A DNA stretch of 51,445 nucleotides, taken from positions 1 to 51,445 of the forward strand of contig WHTE01000005.1 of NCBI GenBank assembly GCA_009377845.1. Direction: 5' to 3'. The position numbers were made by a program, and so were the translations under genes. This stretch comes from Nitrospirales bacterium (GTDB lineage: Bacteria; Nitrospirota; Nitrospiria; Nitrospirales; UBA8639). Every line of letters begins with the position of its first letter. The first letter of the stretch is position 1. Under the pieces are notes generated by a model. The model worked only from the letters and a program-made list of their open reading frames with translations, was not told the origin of the DNA and ran no database searches. This document shows positions 1,391 through 9,405 of this stretch, in pieces.

Positions 1391-1685
1391 AGACAACCTC
1401 CTAAATTGAATAACCAGGAAATCTTGGGAGAGGGGGAAAGAGGAGTCTCCAGAAGCTTAGACGGAAATCCGACATGAGGTCAAGGAATGCCAGTTGCATT
1501 AAGACCGATCTTCCTGTACCGTTTTGAGTGAATCGACCGTCTCGATAGGATCCAAGCCATCCTCCGGCTGTTCTGGCCGGTGTCGTAGCCCAAATCTCCT
1601 CAGACCGGCCTCGATACACAACCTCAGCATTGAACAATGTGGTTCATGCTGCGTCCGGTTGTGCCCAACAAAGGAACTGACTGTC

Positions 1686-3524
1686 ATGCCGAATCAAAAA
1701 CGACGAAGAGACCTTCGCAACGTCGCCATCATCGCTCACGTCGATCATGGCAAAACCACCTTGGTCGATGCCCTGCTGAGACAAACTGGCGCGCATGTGT
1801 TCAAGGAAGGCGAAGCCGTCATTATGGATTCGAATCCCTTGGAAAAAGAACGCGGCATTACCATTTTTTCAAAGAATGCCTCGCTGCTTTATAAAGATAC
1901 GCGCATCAACCTGGTGGATACCCCCGGCCATGCTGACTTTGGCAGTGAGGTCGAGCGAATCCTGCGAATGGTGGATGGCGTGTTATTGCTCGTGGACGCC
2001 ATTGATGGCCCGATGCCTCAAACCAAATTCGTCCTTAAAAAATCGTTGGAATTGCACCTCAAGCCCATCGTGGTCATAAACAAGATCGATCGCCCCAACG
2101 CCCGGCCTGAGGAAATCGTCAATCAAACCTTTGATTTATTTTGTGAACTCAACGCGACCGACGAACAATTGGATTTCCCCATTGTGTACGCATCCGGCAA
2201 AGAAGGACGGTCCACACTGGACCTCATGGATCCCGCAGTCGATATGAAGCCCTTATTGGACACCATCATCCATCGGGTTTTGCCGCCAGTGGCTGATCCT
2301 GAGCAACCGTTTCAAATGCTCGTCACCATGTTGGAATATGACTCCTATATCGGTCGTATTGCCGTGGGACGAATTGTCCATGGCATGATTCAAGTCGGAA
2401 ACCCCATCGTGGCCGTGAAGCGCGATGGCTCCATTGCTCGAGGAAAGGTGACAAAACTGTTGGCCTATCAAGGACTCGTCCGTGTCGAGAGCGAATCCGC
2501 TCAAGCCGGAGACATTATCTCCCTGGCAGGGGTTCAAGACGTTCGGGTGGGAGAAACCCTCGCCTCCCCCCAAAACCCGACAGCCTTACCGACCGTCAAC
2601 GTGGATGAACCCACGATTTCCATGAACTTCTCTCACAACACCAGTCCCTTGGCCGGAAAAGACGGGGGACGTTTTCTTACATCGCGACACATTCGGGAAC
2701 GTCTGGCTCACGAAGCCATGATGAATGTGGGCATCAAAGTGGAGGAGATCGACGGAGGCGAGCGATTTAAAGTCTCCGGACGAGGCGAACTCCATTTGTC
2801 CATTTTAATCGAGACCATGCGCCGGGAAGGGTTTGAAGTGGAAGTGTCCCCGCCCAAAGTCATTTTCAAAGAAATCGATGGTGAACTTCTGGAACCAGTC
2901 GAGCTCGTGATCGTTGAGGTGGATCCAGGCTATCAGGGCTCGGTTATCGAAGCGCTCGGCGGGCGGAAAGCCGAAATGAAAAATCTGCTTATCAGCGCCG
3001 TCGGCACGGTTCGCATGGAATTCCACATTGCCTCCCGGGCCCTCTTAGGCTTTCGCAGTGAATTATTACGGATGACCAGAGGAACCGGCGTGATGTCGCA
3101 AACGTTTCACGAATACCAGCCCTTCAAAGGAGAGATTCCTCATCGTACGGCCGGGGTGCTGATTTCTCACGGCCCCGGACAGGCTGTGGCTTATGGCCTG
3201 TGGGGCCTCCAGGACCGCGGAGAAATTTTCCTGCACCCCGGAGCGGACCTCTATGAAGGCATGATTGTCGGTATTAATAATAAAGGGAACGATCTGGTGG
3301 TGAATGCCATTCGGGAGAAAAAACTGACGAATATCCGTGCGGCTAGCTCTGATGAAGCCATTCACCTGATTCCGCCACAGGACATGACGTTGGAGTTTGC
3401 CCTGGAATTTATCGAAGACGACGAACTAGTCGAAGTCACACCAAAAAGCATTCGCCTTCGCAAACGCTATCTCACCGACAACGAACGCCGCGCCGCCCGA
3501 AACCAGGCCAAGAAGGCCCAGTAA
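1686..3524 (+). CDS. typA: Ribosome-associated GTPase TypA/BipA
   Basis: This 612-residue translational GTPase acts on the ribosome, where BipA is known to help 50S assembly and stress adaptation. The G motifs are clear: P-loop AHVDHGKTT (residues 17-25), RGITI (G2), DTPGH (G3) and NKID (G4). EF-G-like domains and the BipA-specific C-terminal region follow. The frame is open further upstream to 1524, but the start at 1686 ([16 protein letters not shown]) fits the family length and has AAAGGAA about 8 bases upstream. The gene stands alone, divergent from the radical SAM gene. A copy of the structured repeat lies 32 bp behind its stop. Confidence 0.96.
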
Positions 3525-4230: not shown

Positions 4231-5127
4231 ATGAACAATCTTTTTTTTAAAGGGCATGGTTTGGGGAATGACTATATTGCCCTCGACCCTTCCAAACTTT
4301 CCTTTCGATTAACTCCCCGCACCATCCGGGCCCTCTGCAATCGACATTGGGGAGTGGGGAGTGACGGCATTCTGGCACTCAGTCCTTCAAAAAAGGCTGA
4401 TTTTGGTTTACGTATTTACAATCCTGACGGGAGCGAAGCAGAAAAATCAGGTAATGGACTGCGGATTTTCGGCTGCTATCTGTACCACACCAAGCTCACG
4501 AAGAAACAACAATTTACGGTGGAAACCAAAGGAGGCCTGGTCGAGGTCCATTTGGAACTGAATGGCCATGGATACGTGAATGGAGCCACGGTCGACATGG
4601 GGCGTGCGTCATTTCAACCCATTGCCCTTCCCTGTACCTTACGCGTGCCTGAATTGATCCAACAACCGGTCAAGGCGGCCGGTCAATCCCTCCGGTTTAC
4701 CGGAGTCAGCGTCGGAAATCCCCATTGCGTGGTGTATAAAAAGCGGGACGAACACTGGACCAGGCAGGAGCTTCTGCAAATCGGTCCCGAACTGGAAAAT
4801 CACATTATTTTCCCGAAACGGACCAATGTCCAATTGGCCGTCCCCGCCGGGCCTCGGGCCATTTCTATTTTGATTTGGGAACGAGGTGCGGGAGAAACAC
4901 AGGCCTCGGGGTCCTCCGCCTGTGCGGCAGCTTGTGCAGGAGTACGATTAGGGTTAGTCAAAAGCCCAGTTCGGGTGAAAGCCCCCGGAGGGACACTGGA
5001 TATTACCGTCGACCCTCAATACAACATCACGATGAAAGGGCCCGTCCTTGAAGTGGCCCGAGGGGAAATCAGTCAAGCCTTCATTCACGGCTTGCGCCAG
5101 GCAGTTGCGACTCACCCGCCCTCATAA
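4231..5127 (+). CDS. dapF: Diaminopimelate epimerase family protein with both catalytic cysteines replaced by serine
   Basis: The protein has 298 residues, starting at ATG 4231 behind GGAG. The frame is open further upstream, but the DapF fold starts here (NLFFKGHGLGNDYI). Signature blocks NPDGSEAEKSGNGLR (residues 64-78), GNPHCVV (162-168) and ERGAGETQASGSSAC (217-231) place it firmly in the DapF family. Classical DapF converts LL- to meso-diaminopimelate for lysine and peptidoglycan, using two cysteines as acid and base. Here both positions are serine: Ser73 (codon TCA) replaces the QCGNG cysteine and Ser226 (codon TCG) the ACGTG cysteine. The fold and substrate-binding residues look intact, so it may be an altered isomerase or a non-catalytic homologue. 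The family is sure; DapF activity is doubtful. Confidence 0.85.
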   Translation: MNNLFFKGHGLGNDYIALDPSKLSFRLTPRTIRALCNRHWGVGSDGILALSPSKKADFGLRIYNPDGSEAEKSGNGLRIFGCYLYHTKLTKKQQFTVETKGGLVEVHLELNGHGYVNGATVDMGRASFQPIALPCTLRVPELIQQPVKAAGQSLRFTGVSVGNPHCVVYKKRDEHWTRQELLQIGPELENHIIFPKRTNVQLAVPAGPRAISILIWERGAGETQASGSSACAAACAGVRLGLVKSPVRVKAPGGTLDITVDPQYNITMKGPVLEVARGEISQAFIHGLRQAVATHPPS

Positions 5128-5159: not shown

Positions 5160-5528
5160 TCACCCTCCAAATCCTCGCAGATAGGCCAGGACATCCTGTA
5201 TGTGCTGGTCGGATAACTCCCCCTTCCAGGATGGCATGGAGGTTCCCGGCTTTCCGTCTCGAATAATCGTTAACAATTCTTTCTCTGATTTTTTCTGCAC
5301 CATCTCAGTCGTTAAGTCAGCAGGCCGTGGCGTGAGACTGTCCGCCACCGGGCCATCACCTTGACCTTTGGTCCCGTGACAATTCAGACAATTGGTCCTA
5401 TACACACTTGCCCCCCTCTCGGCATTGCCTGTGGGATCGGCATTGTCTGTTGGGCCATCCGCCAACACCAGGCCCCCATGCAACATGGCAAACACCACCA
5501 CCACACCCGCTTGAACACGAATTCTCAC
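5160..5528 (-). CDS. Small exported monoheme cytochrome c
   Basis: The product has 122 residues with an N-terminal signal peptide (residues 1-23, cleavage near LADG). A single heme-c site CLNCH sits at 47-51, and the likely axial Met is in GTSMPSW near residue 97. It resembles small class I cytochromes c that carry electrons in the periplasm. It starts 21 bp after the di-heme peroxidase stop on the same strand, so the two are almost certainly cotranscribed. It may be the electron donor of that peroxidase. The donor role is inferred from position only. Confidence 0.88.
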   Translation of the reverse strand: MRIRVQAGVVVVFAMLHGGLVLADGPTDNADPTGNAERGASVYRTNCLNCHGTKGQGDGPVADSLTPRPADLTTEMVQKKSEKELLTIIRDGKPGTSMPSWKGELSDQHIQDVLAYLRGFGG

Positions 5529-5549
5529 AGATCTGCCTTTCAGTCCGGT

Positions 5550-6620
5550 TTATTCTGGTAATTTCGGAAACTCAAACGGAATCGGTTCGCCGGTCAACGA
5601 CTTTAAAAAGGCAATCAGATCATTTTTTTCTTGCGGGGCCAATCCTAGAGGCTTGATGCGCGTATCCAAATTCGGGTTGGCATTTCCTCCTTTATCATAA
5701 AAGTCGACGACTTCCTCCAATGTTTTAAAGGCTCCGTCATGCATGTACGGGGCGGTTTCAATGATGCTTCGGAGCGTCGGCGTCTTGAATGCACCCTTAT
5801 CGACGTCCTTCCGCGTCACCTCATACCGGCCTAAGTCTTCTTTCATCGGTCCCACTTGAGGCACACCGGTGTTATGGAATTGATTATCGGTAAAATTTGA
5901 GTCGTGGTGGCACAGAATGCACCGGCCTTTTCCTTTAAACACCGCCATCCCGCGTTGCGCGTCTTCACCCATCGCTTGTGGATCACCTAACACAAATTTG
6001 TCGAAGGCTGAATTGGTGGAGATGATCGTCCGTTCAAAGGCGGCAATCGCGTCCGCAATCCCTTGGATATTCACGCTCGTTCCCAAGGCGGCTTGAAATT
6101 GCTCACGATAGCCTTTGATCTTGTCGAGTTTCTTGACCACGTTTTCATGGGTCTCCGCCATTTCAATAGGATTGTGAATCGGGGCGATGGCTTGCTCCTC
6201 CAACGACCCGGCTCGCCCGTCCCAAAACTGGAAGGGATTAAAGGCGGTGTTATACACCGTTGGCGCCTGACGACCTCCCCGCTGTCCGCCCACACCCACC
6301 GAGGTTTGGTTGGGATCGGCAAATCCAACGACCGGGTTATGACAAAATGCACAGGAAATCGCATTGTTTTTGGACAACCGTCCATCAAAATAGAGCTGCT
6401 TGCCCAATGAAACTTTGGCGGCATAATTTAAATTGGTGGCCGGCGTGGGCACTGCCGTCGGAAGAGGGCCAATATCGGGAACCGTATGACCATCCACTGT
6501 CAACATGCTTGTTTTGGATTCAAGCCCCGGCTCACTTCCCGTCCCAGTTGAAGCCATCATGAACAGACCCATCATTCCACAAACCAATGCGCCAACTTTT
6601 CTCTTGATGCCTGTGCTCAT
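5550..6620 (-). CDS. Di-heme cytochrome c peroxidase (CcpA/MauG family)
   Basis: The protein has 356 residues with an N-terminal hydrophobic export signal (about 8-24). The two heme-c motifs CAFCH (90-94) and CILCH (234-238) sit about 145 residues apart, as in bacterial di-heme peroxidases. The conserved SVGVGGQRGGRQAPTVYN and FWDGRAGSLEEQA segments lie between them. Such enzymes reduce hydrogen peroxide to water in the periplasm with electrons from small cytochromes c. It leads a two-gene minus-strand operon with the downstream monoheme cytochrome. About 260 bp separate its start from hrpB, enough for divergent promoters. The MauG subgroup modifies proteins instead, and I cannot exclude that. 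Confidence 0.93.
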   Translation of the reverse strand: MSTGIKRKVGALVCGMMGLFMMASTGTGSEPGLESKTSMLTVDGHTVPDIGPLPTAVPTPATNLNYAAKVSLGKQLYFDGRLSKNNAISCAFCHNPVVGFADPNQTSVGVGGQRGGRQAPTVYNTAFNPFQFWDGRAGSLEEQAIAPIHNPIEMAETHENVVKKLDKIKGYREQFQAALGTSVNIQGIADAIAAFERTIISTNSAFDKFVLGDPQAMGEDAQRGMAVFKGKGRCILCHHDSNFTDNQFHNTGVPQVGPMKEDLGRYEVTRKDVDKGAFKTPTLRSIIETAPYMHDGAFKTLEEVVDFYDKGGNANPNLDTRIKPLGLAPQEKNDLIAFLKSLTGEPIPFEFPKLPE

Positions 6621-6882
6621 TCCTTCATCTCCTCCTGATTTGGTTTGTCGTATTCAAGACATCCGGCTAAGACAACAACGATCCCATATCACTGACAATG
6701 AGAATCTTTACTTTGAATAATTCAGTGTACCGCGAATGTCACTTCAATGGTAAGACCATTCACCCAAATGTGAAAGAGGTGCTCCTCCGTGGTCTTTTCA
6801 GGTAAGTTCCTTACCCGACATTGAAGCTTTGTTTACTTATTCAGAAACCATGATTCACACTCTCACCTTCGCCTAATCCCGC

Positions 6883-9405
6883 ATGAAGAGCCAATCGTAT
6901 CCCATTGACGCCGTTATTCCCAGGTTACAACAGACACTGAGGCAACACCGCATCGTGCTCCTCACCGCACAGCCGGGCGCCGGCAAAACGACACAGATCC
7001 CGCTGGCCCTTCTCCAAGAACCGTGGCTGATTCCCAAGACCATTATCATGCTGGAGCCTCGCCGGTTGGCGGCGCGCGCGGCGGCACGCCGCATGTCCGA
7101 CCTCCTGGGTGAAGCCATCGGCACCACCGTTGGATACCGGACACGGTTGGACACCAAAATCGGCCCGAACACGAAACTAGAAGTGGTGACCGAAGGCATT
7201 CTCACGAGGGTGCTTCAACACGATCCGTCTTTACAGAAGTATGGCTTGGTCATCTTTGATGAATTTCATGAACGTAGCCTGCAAGCCGATCTGGGTCTGG
7301 CCTTATGCCTGGAAACTCAAAAAGTGTTTCGAGAAGATCTTCGGCTCTTGATCATGTCGGCCACGCTGGACACTACGGCCATTTGTCAGCACTTGACACA
7401 GCCTCCCATCATCACCTGCGAGGGAAACATGTTTCCGGTCGAAACCCGCTATGTCGGGAAACCGGAGCGAAAAGATTTCGCTCCGCAAGTGGCACAAACT
7501 ATTCTTCGTCTGCTGAAGACCGACCAGGGCAACCTCCTGGTCTTTCTTCCGGGAGCCGGAGAAATCCGGCGAGTGGAGGGGCTCTTGGCGGACCTTCCGC
7601 TTGGCCCGCACACGCTGATCGCTCCGCTGTATGGTGATCTATCCGCCCAGGCCCAGGACCAGGCCATTCTGCCGCCACCTGCCGGATGGCGCAAAGTCGT
7701 CTTATCCACCAACATTGCCGAAACCAGTCTGACCATCGAAGGCATTCGTCTCGTCGTCGATACCGGTCTCATGCGTGTGCCACGCTTTGATCCGCGCAGC
7801 GGCATGAGCCGGCTGACCACCATCCAGGTCTCACAACAATCGGCCGAACAACGTCGCGGTCGAGCCGGACGTCTGGAACCCGGCCTGTGCGTGCGATTCT
7901 GGTCCGAGGCCGAGCAGCGTACCTTCACGCCGCGCACCACACCGGAAATTCTGGACGCCGACCTGACCTCTCTTGCCTTGGAATTGGCCCAATGGGGAAT
8001 TCGCAATCCGCAGGAATTGCTCTGGCTGGATCCTCCTCCTTCGGGGGCCATGGCTCAGGCGCGACAGCTCCTTCTATCCCTTGGCGCATTAGATGCCCAA
8101 GGTCACATCACCGATCACGGCCAATGCATGGCGAACCTCCCCATGCACCCGCGGCTCGCGCATATGGTCCTCAAGGGGCAGGCGTTGGGATTGGGAGCCT
8201 TGGCGTGTGATCTCGCCGCAGCCTTAAGCGAACGGGACCTGTTCAAGGGATCGATTGCACGAGAGCATGCCGATCTTCGCATCCGGTTCGATGTTCTTTA
8301 TGGAGGGTCCCATGGACAGAGAGACAAAGAATCTCCGGATAAGAGAACCATCCAACGCATTCGCCAAGCCTCTCAGGCCTGGCAACGGGCGCTTCGCATC
8401 ACCACTCCTCCGCATCTCCCCAAACAGCAGATCGATCGGATGAGCGTGCTCCTGGCCCTGGCCTATCCCGACCGGATTGCCCAACGACAATCGGATGAGG
8501 CCGGACGATATCGGCTGACCAATGGACTGAGCGCAAGATTCCATCACCCCGATCCGTTAGGGCATGAAGAATGGTTAGTCATTGCAGACCTTCACGGTGC
8601 ACCCTCGACGGCACGCATCTCTATGGCCGCCCCGATTACACATGAGGATCTGGTCACCCATTGCGCCGATCTCATACAGTCAACGGAGTCGGTGACGTGG
8701 GATGAATCGGCGCAAGCCGTCATGGCTCGTCGCCAACGCCGACTGGGAGAACTCATTCTTGAAGAAAGCCGCCTCCCCGATCCGGATCCTGAATTGGTGT
8801 TGACCGCGCTGCTCGAAGGCCTTCGAAACAAGGGCCTATCCTGTTTGCCCTGGACTCCTGCTCTCAGAAACTGGCAGGCGCGGGTCCAATTCCTCCGCCA
8901 CGTCACAGGACCGGAGTCCGCCTGGCCGGATGTCTCGGACGACACACTCCTTCATACACTGGACCAGTGGCTTGCCCCCTATCTCACCAATCTCTCCAGC
9001 CTCAATCAACTGAAACGAATCGATCTGGCATGGCCGCTTCAGGCACTTCTCTCTCCGAAACAACGACGCGCAATCGACACACTGGCGCCCACCCATCTCA
9101 CAATGCCGACGGGATCGCACATTCCCTTGGAGTATCAGTTGGGAGAGATTCCGGTTTTGGCTGTCCGTCTTCAAGAGTTATTTGGACAATGCGACACGCC
9201 CCGCCTGGTGAACGGCAGAGTCCCCGTCCTCATTCATCTGCTCTCTCCGGCCAGACGCCCCGTCCAGGTCACCCAGGACCTCACCAGTTTTTGGGCCACC
9301 GGCTACCAAGCGGTCAAAAAAGAATTAAAAGGCCGGTATCCGAAACACTCTTGGCCCGACGATCCCCTTCAAGCCCCACCCACCCGCGGCATCAAAAAAC
9401 GATAG
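6883..9405 (+). CDS. hrpB: ATP-dependent helicase HrpB (DEAH family)
   Basis: The 840-residue protein has the full DEAH helicase order. Walker A AQPGAGKTTQIP is at residues 29-40, DEFHER near 126-131 and SATLD soon after. Motif V/VI region STNIAETSLTIEGI and QQSAEQRRGRAGR follows, with the long HrpB-specific C-terminal domain behind it. The length matches HrpB (about 800-850). The cellular role of HrpB is poorly known; it is thought to act on RNA. The gene stands alone on the plus strand. The start at 6883 is the first ATG before the conserved N-terminal helix. Confidence 0.95.
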   Translation: MKSQSYPIDAVIPRLQQTLRQHRIVLLTAQPGAGKTTQIPLALLQEPWLIPKTIIMLEPRRLAARAAARRMSDLLGEAIGTTVGYRTRLDTKIGPNTKLEVVTEGILTRVLQHDPSLQKYGLVIFDEFHERSLQADLGLALCLETQKVFREDLRLLIMSATLDTTAICQHLTQPPIITCEGNMFPVETRYVGKPERKDFAPQVAQTILRLLKTDQGNLLVFLPGAGEIRRVEGLLADLPLGPHTLIAPLYGDLSAQAQDQAILPPPAGWRKVVLSTNIAETSLTIEGIRLVVDTGLMRVPRFDPRSGMSRLTTIQVSQQSAEQRRGRAGRLEPGLCVRFWSEAEQRTFTPRTTPEILDADLTSLALELAQWGIRNPQELLWLDPPPSGAMAQARQLLLSLGALDAQGHITDHGQCMANLPMHPRLAHMVLKGQALGLGALACDLAAALSERDLFKGSIAREHADLRIRFDVLYGGSHGQRDKESPDKRTIQRIRQASQAWQRALRITTPPHLPKQQIDRMSVLLALAYPDRIAQRQSDEAGRYRLTNGLSARFHHPDPLGHEEWLVIADLHGAPSTARISMAAPITHEDLVTHCADLIQSTESVTWDESAQAVMARRQRRLGELILEESRLPDPDPELVLTALLEGLRNKGLSCLPWTPALRNWQARVQFLRHVTGPESAWPDVSDDTLLHTLDQWLAPYLTNLSSLNQLKRIDLAWPLQALLSPKQRRAIDTLAPTHLTMPTGSHIPLEYQLGEIPVLAVRLQELFGQCDTPRLVNGRVPVLIHLLSPARRPVQVTQDLTSFWATGYQAVKKELKGRYPKHSWPDDPLQAPPTRGIKKR

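What the first reader, a model, noticed from the sequence alone, without database searches (positions are those of the whole stretch)
4231..5127. DapF homologue with Ser/Ser in place of the catalytic Cys/Cys
Canonical DapF uses two cysteines (E. coli Cys73 and Cys217) as the acid-base pair. Here the corresponding codons are TCA (Ser73) and TCG (Ser226), while the flanking GNG, NPDGS and ERG.GET blocks are intact. A classical two-cysteine racemisation cannot work. Either the chemistry changed, the protein is regulatory, or another DapF is elsewhere in the genome.
Basis: partly seen in the sequence, partly recalled or inferred. Interest (0 to 1): 0.7.

Follow-up and report, generated by a model that had tools for sequence, protein, structure and literature searches.

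The report
DAP epimerase with paired catalytic serines
This is the only copy, in this bacterium, of an enzyme needed to make a cell-wall and lysine building block, and both cysteines that normally do its chemistry are serines; the same serine pair is conserved in bacteria of more than a dozen phyla, so it is a widespread and apparently untested variant rather than an error.

Summary
The ORF at 4231-5127 (+) is a full-length DapF (TIGR00652, 227 bits, cut-off 115). The two catalytic Cys positions are Ser73 (TCA, 4447-4449) and Ser226 (TCG, 4906-4908). It is not an error: Ser/Ser was read in every relative fetched from two families of the same order, bar G055, and 67 Ser/Ser proteins from more than a dozen phyla form one clade (SH-aLRT 97) on a tree built without the two catalytic columns. 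This genome and 14 near-complete Ser/Ser relatives carry one DapF each. Sixteen such genomes, 12 single-contig, all have LysA and MurE, none has DAP dehydrogenase above cut-off, and five of five tested encode LL-DAP aminotransferase. Meso-DAP therefore has to come from LL-DAP, and no other known epimerase was found. Best reading: a working DAP epimerase using serine instead of cysteine. Precedent is partial: Ser/Cys hydroxyproline epimerases. I found no assayed Ser/Ser enzyme of this fold, and activity is untested here. Some bacteria carry a Ser/Ser protein beside a Cys/Cys DapF, so other functions may exist within the clade.

The parts
4231..5127 (+). dapF, Ser/Ser diaminopimelate epimerase homologue (298 aa)
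   Evidence: AlphaFold model mean pLDDT 94.3, nearest folds mostly DapF
4447..4449 (+). codon TCA, Ser73, at the position of catalytic Cys73
   Evidence: N-cap of predicted helix 74-86
4906..4908 (+). codon TCG, Ser226, at the position of catalytic Cys217
   Evidence: N-cap of predicted helix 227-239
4420..4467 (+). first active-site block NPDGSEAEKSGNGLRI (N64, K72, S73, G74, N75)
   Evidence: N64, G74, N75 and S73 invariant in 67 of 67 clade rows; K72 in 63 of 67
4879..4929 (+). second active-site block ERGAGETQASGSSACAA (E217, R218, S226, G227, S228)
   Evidence: E217, R218, S226, G227 invariant in 67 of 67 clade rows
1524..3524 (+). upstream neighbour, TypA/BipA GTPase; not part of the system (true start probably downstream of the listed TTG)

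Best explanation
The gene encodes the organism's only diaminopimelate epimerase, a member of an old, multi-phylum DapF clade in which both catalytic cysteines are serines. Shown: the substitution, its conservation, the single copy, the LL-DAP-producing and meso-DAP-consuming genes in the genome, and a predicted DapF fold with an intact DAP pocket. Inferred: LL-DAP binds as in canonical DapF; in the closed form the hydroxyls of Ser73 and Ser226, each at the N-cap of a central helix, face the two sides of the alpha-carbon. [quoted passage not shown] Most speculative: how a serine becomes basic enough (helix dipoles, substrate ammonium, or Lys72, which precedes Ser73 in 63 of 67 members).
For: (1) One PF01678 protein per genome in G000 and 14 near-complete Ser/Ser relatives. 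In the phylum scan nearly every close relative has a single hit, although Cys/Cys DapFs of the phylum are detectable with the same query. (2) 16 of 16 Ser/Ser genomes, 12 of them single-contig and all 16 dapF sequences read, have LysA and MurE over cut-off and 0 of 16 have Ddh over cut-off. DapL over cut-off in G000 (615 vs 593) and in 4 of 4 relatives scanned. MurE of G000 is the DAP-adding type with DNPR motif. LysA and DAP-type MurE need meso-DAP, DapL makes LL-DAP (established pathway knowledge). (3) The residues whose Ala mutants kill C. glutamicum DapF (N15, N74, N85, N159, N194, E212, R213; PMC5296763) correspond to invariant residues in 67 of 67 Ser/Ser rows (window N13, N64, N75, N163, N199, E217, R218), and its T223 is Ser or Thr in all 67. 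(4) Model pLDDT 94.3; Ser73 and Ser226 at the N-caps of helices 74-86 and 227-239; best folds are DAP epimerases and O-ureidoserine racemase, Z 33-36. (5) 67 Ser/Ser rows are one clade with catalytic columns masked (SH-aLRT 97), and Ser survives TCN/AGY codon changes. (6) Ser at the second position also occurs in other parts of the tree (Rhodobacterales, Dehalococcoidia, others), as the only DapF in the seven Rhodobacterales and one Dehalococcoidia genomes tested, all eight with LysA and none with Ddh. (7) In Tangfeifania the sole Ser/Ser dapF lies next to lysA. [quoted passage not shown]
Against: No assay. Engineered Cys-to-Ser mutants of a relative are greatly impaired (HisR C67S/C209S, PMC11602996), and Cys-to-Ser is used to hinder catalysis for crystals (PMC12039745). 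Serine is a far weaker acid than cysteine. Several genomes keep a Cys/Cys DapF beside the Ser/Ser one, so the clade is not uniformly the housekeeping enzyme. An epimerase unrelated to PF01678 would not have been seen. Three of 14 sole-Ser/Ser genomes from other phyla showed no LysA, three more only below cut-off, and one has Ddh.
Confidence: 0.66

Rival explanations
1. The Ser/Ser protein acts on another substrate or catalyses another reaction (a different amino acid, an isomerisation or a dehydration), and an unknown non-homologous enzyme makes meso-DAP in these genomes.
For: Co-occurrence with Cys/Cys DapF in Lacrimispora, Anaeromicropila, Ewingella, Pseudomonas LP_7_YM, Paludibacter and Clostridium LS. 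The Pseudomonas copy sits between an aminotransferase, a semialdehyde dehydrogenase and a GNAT, the Lacrimispora copy beside a D-Ala-D-Ala-ligase-like protein. Ser/Thr in the proline racemase superfamily goes with dehydratase activity.
Against: The DAP-contact residues are conserved over the whole clade. Each sole-copy lineage would need the same unseen replacement epimerase. Cys/Cys and Ser/Ser forms replace each other one for one within the order.
Confidence: 0.19
2. It is a catalytically dead or nearly dead regulatory protein, like the RppH-binding side role of E. coli DapF, and a trickle of meso-DAP comes from elsewhere.
For: Both catalytic cysteines are gone; moonlighting of DapF is known (PMC4227774, listed).
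Against: A dead enzyme need not keep both Ser, the substrate pocket and the helix caps invariant across phyla, and no second epimerase of this family exists.
Confidence: 0.08
3. It epimerises DAP, but not by two serine bases: one serine plus a water, Lys72, or a substrate-assisted path does the proton transfers.
For: K72 precedes Ser73 in 63 of 67 Ser/Ser rows against M, F, Q or N in Cys/Cys rows.
Against: Both serines are strictly conserved, and Ser73 without Lys72 persists in Lachnospiraceae copies.
Confidence: 0.06
4. Sequencing or assembly error at both codons.
For: Draft genome with 169 contigs.
Against: The same pair occurs in single-contig and independent genomes at 66-93% identity.
Confidence: 0.001

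Closest known systems
Diaminopimelate epimerase DapF, EC 5.1.1.7 (TIGR00652, PF01678; E. coli, H. influenzae, C. glutamicum)
   Same: Full-length homology above cut-off, fold (Z 33-36 to most solved DapFs), all DAP-contact residues, place in the DapL/LysA/MurE pathway, single copy.
   Different: Both catalytic Cys are Ser; clade-specific K72, I79 (Cys in canonical), P65, S229 (Gly in canonical) and V272 (Ala in canonical).
Ser/Cys 4-hydroxyproline 2-epimerase and Ser/Thr trans-3-hydroxyproline dehydratase, proline racemase superfamily (PMC4113996)
   Same: Same overall fold; a natural Ser replaces the first catalytic Cys; [quoted passage not shown]
   Different: About 11-14% identity, other substrates; only one side is Ser in the epimerase, and the Ser/Thr enzyme is a dehydratase. 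Here both sides are Ser.
Aspartate/glutamate racemase EcL-DER (Cys/Thr; PMC8142540)
   Same: A cofactor-independent racemase with one catalytic Cys naturally replaced by a hydroxyl residue.
   Different: Another fold (own knowledge); one Cys remains and the reaction is reported as irreversible.
Engineered H. influenzae DapF C73S (2q9h) and C217S (2q9j)
   Same: Same fold and the same single residues changed.
   Different: Single engineered mutants; here the double state is natural and conserved together with other clade-specific residues.

Membership tests
DapF (TIGR00652 / PF01678) | Whole-protein score above the curated cut-off | tested here: met
   227.2 bits vs 114.65; PF01678 177.4 vs 34.7
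DapF (TIGR00652 / PF01678) | Two-domain DapF fold | tested here: met
   pLDDT 94.3; Z 36.2, rmsd 1.9, 270 aligned to 9mro; Z 33.6, rmsd 2.4, 272 aligned to E. coli DapF
DapF (TIGR00652 / PF01678) | DAP-contact residues (Asn x5, Glu, Arg, Ser/Thr) | tested here: met
   N13, N64, N75, N163, N199, E217, R218, S228; seven invariant, the eighth Ser or Thr, in the clade
DapF (TIGR00652 / PF01678) | Catalytic Cys/Cys acid-base pair | tested here: not met
   Ser73/Ser226. So it is a homologue and variant, not a canonical two-cysteine DapF
DapF (TIGR00652 / PF01678) | Epimerises LL-DAP to meso-DAP | not testable with these tools
   Only genomic inference
Proline racemase superfamily Ser/Cys epimerases | One Ser and one Cys on opposite faces | tested here: not met
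   Both are Ser
Bifunctional DapF/glutamate racemase (NF038284) | Score above the curated cut-off | tested here: not met
   53.1 bits vs 350

The most novel reading that the evidence does not exclude
A large clade of cofactor-independent amino-acid epimerases, spread over more than a dozen bacterial phyla, runs the two-base alpha-carbon proton transfer with two serines and no cysteine, which current accounts of thiolate-based racemases do not cover.
Probability: 0.6. Interest if true: 0.85.

Novelty: new variant of a known kind. Interest (0 to 1): 0.62.

Why it matters
The catalytic thiolate pair is the textbook basis of PLP-independent racemases and the target of aziridine and other thiol-directed DapF inhibitors. 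If a serine pair does the same job in many phyla, the chemistry of alpha-carbon deprotonation has to be rethought, thiol-directed inhibitors should miss these organisms, and annotation rules that require Cys would drop an enzyme needed for cell wall and lysine. It is directly testable with one purified protein.

Tried and rejected
Sequencing error: rejected, the pair recurs in single-contig relatives. Second DapF in the genome: not found. Ddh bypass: not found above cut-off; the best is 119 bits vs 180.6, in G053 only. A cysteine elsewhere in the active site: the Cys in the window's block GLRIFGCYL is absent in the f3 relatives (GLRIFARYL), so it cannot be the general replacement. Bifunctional DapF/glutamate racemase: far below cut-off. 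Gene neighbourhood as a general clue: weak; a pooled scan of neighbours from sole-copy genomes showed no recurring family, and the window's neighbours are TypA, cytochromes and HrpB. Plasmid-borne copies: 117 records matched with the window protein, all under 60% identity, the best-listed hits being annotated or placed as ordinary dapF. Literature on a natural Ser/Ser DapF or on dapF essentiality in Rhodobacterales: nothing found in the open library. No coordinates were available, so Ser-Ser distances were not measured.

Full report
Observation. The ORF at 4231-5127 (+) encodes a 298-residue DapF homologue. It passes the curated DapF equivalog model about twofold (227 vs 115 bits) and aligns nearly end to end with solved DapFs. 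At the two catalytic positions it has Ser73 (TCA, 4447-4449) and Ser226 (TCG, 4906-4908), with the flanking blocks intact.

Not an error and not local. The same NPDG[ST]EAEKSGNGLRI and ERG[AV]GETQASGSS[AS]CA blocks were read in the relatives of the window's own family and in those of a second family of the order, including single-contig genomes. Ser73 is written with TCN in some and AGY in others; these boxes are not one step apart, so the residue is being held by selection. Other families of the same order carry a different, 30-38% identical DapF, which is Cys/Cys in f2 and f4; one member of f3, G055, has a Ser/Cys form of that type. Two further lineages of the phylum, f21 and f18, are Ser/Ser as well.

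Spread. Ser/Ser was found in Verrucomicrobiota, Chloroflexota, Thermodesulfobacteriota (including MAGs filed as Dadabacteria), Bacteroidota, Planctomycetota, Bacillota, Actinomycetota, Spirochaetota, Armatimonadota, Cyanobacteriota, Pseudomonadota, Rokuibacteriota, Methylomirabilota, Latescibacterota, FCPU426 and SAR324 (taxa as named by the records or the tree tool). On a tree of 105 proteins built with the two catalytic columns removed, 67 Ser/Ser rows form one side of a branch (SH-aLRT 97). Only the HR10/HR08 pair lies elsewhere, and a single Ser/Ser clade including that pair is not rejected either (AU p 0.54). Cys/Ser forms lie in other parts of the tree: Rhodobacterales, Dehalococcoidia, two actinomycete MAGs and a Poribacterium. 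The tree is a quick one with several long branches, so the number of origins is uncertain.

Is it the only DapF? The window's genome has one. Sixteen near-complete genomes of the order, fifteen of them Ser/Ser (G000 included) and one Ser/Cys, have one each. In the 295-genome phylum scan the close relatives show one hit each, apart from a tandem duplicate and contig-split copies. Outside the phylum the picture is mixed. Tangfeifania, Opitutaceae, Rokubacteria, Dadabacteria, Methylomirabilota, Anaerolineae, Latescibacteria and SAR324 have only the Ser/Ser one. Lacrimispora, Anaeromicropila, Ewingella, Pseudomonas LP_7_YM, Paludibacter, Clostridium LS and some MAGs have a Cys/Cys DapF as well.

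Does the cell need a DAP epimerase? Sixteen Ser/Ser genomes (12 single-contig or more; all 16 dapF sequences read) were searched. LysA and MurE are over cut-off in 16 of 16; meso-DAP dehydrogenase is over cut-off in 0 of 16. The window's genome has LL-DAP aminotransferase at 615 bits vs 593, four of four relatives scanned pass the same model, and its MurE is the DAP-adding type with a DNPR motif. By established pathway knowledge DapL gives LL-DAP and LysA uses meso-DAP, so an epimerase is required, and no other candidate of the family exists. In other phyla LysA is over cut-off in 8 of 14 sole-Ser/Ser genomes, below cut-off in three and unseen in three; one has Ddh. All seven Rhodobacterales genomes and one Dehalococcoidia genome with a sole Cys/Ser DapF have LysA and none has Ddh. 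In Tangfeifania the Ser/Ser dapF adjoins lysA.

Anatomy. The AlphaFold model (pLDDT 94.3) has helices 74-86 and 227-239, so Ser73 and Ser226 sit at their N-caps, where canonical enzymes of this fold hold their cysteines (helix placement as described in PMC11602996). The nearest folds are DAP epimerases and the related O-ureidoserine racemase, Z 33-36. Residues shown by mutation to be needed for activity and DAP binding in C. glutamicum DapF (PMC5296763) are kept throughout the clade: seven invariant and the eighth Ser or Thr. The clade differs from Cys/Cys DapFs in few strongly conserved positions besides the serines, among them K72, I79, P65, S229, Q201 and V272. Lys72 directly before Ser73 (63 of 67) is the most suggestive, but it is not universal.

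Mechanism. Best reading (0.66): LL-DAP epimerisation by two serines on opposite faces of the alpha-carbon. The steps up to substrate binding rest on conserved residues; the proton transfers are inferred. [quoted passage not shown] The same paper describes a Ser/Thr dehydratase, so a change of reaction is a real rival. Against: engineered Cys-to-Ser mutants of HisR are greatly impaired and such mutants are used to hinder catalysis for crystallography, although a single change in an enzyme tuned for cysteine is not the same as an old Ser/Ser lineage.

Novelty. The open library held no natural Ser/Ser DapF; most subscription papers are not in it, so absence there is weak. I rate it a new variant of a known kind: family membership by sequence, fold and binding site is met, while the defining Cys/Cys pair was tested and is not met.

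Noticed in passing
L043 (G002:C122), second copy at record positions 6519-6890: A relative carries, besides the intact Ser/Ser dapF, a broken second fragment (87% identical, with in-frame stops) in which the Ser226 position is Leu.
   Followed up: no
L091 (G236:C22:829700-832400): Two tandem Ser/Ser dapF copies in one genome of the same order.
   Followed up: partly
L133:227-3659: Pseudomonas sp. LP_7_YM: a divergent Ser/Ser DapF in a possible biosynthetic cluster (aminotransferase, semialdehyde dehydrogenase, DapF-like, GNAT), in a genome that also has a Cys/Cys DapF.
   Followed up: partly
L118:4434-6310 and L157:4391-6270: Lacrimispora Ser/Ser DapF next to a D-Ala-D-Ala-ligase-like ATP-grasp protein, in genomes that also have a Cys/Cys DapF.
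   Followed up: partly
L097, L104, L111, L128 (Rhodobacterales and relatives); L121, L132, L160 (Dehalococcoidia): DapF is Cys/Ser; it is the sole DapF in the seven Rhodobacterales genomes and the one Dehalococcoidia genome tested.
   Followed up: partly
L048 (G055): A genome of family f3 lacks the Ser/Ser DapF and carries a different Ser/Cys DapF of the type found in families f2 and f4.
   Followed up: partly
window 5160-6620, - strand: A small cytochrome c and a di-haem cytochrome c peroxidase/MauG-type protein lie just downstream of dapF on the opposite strand.
   Followed up: no
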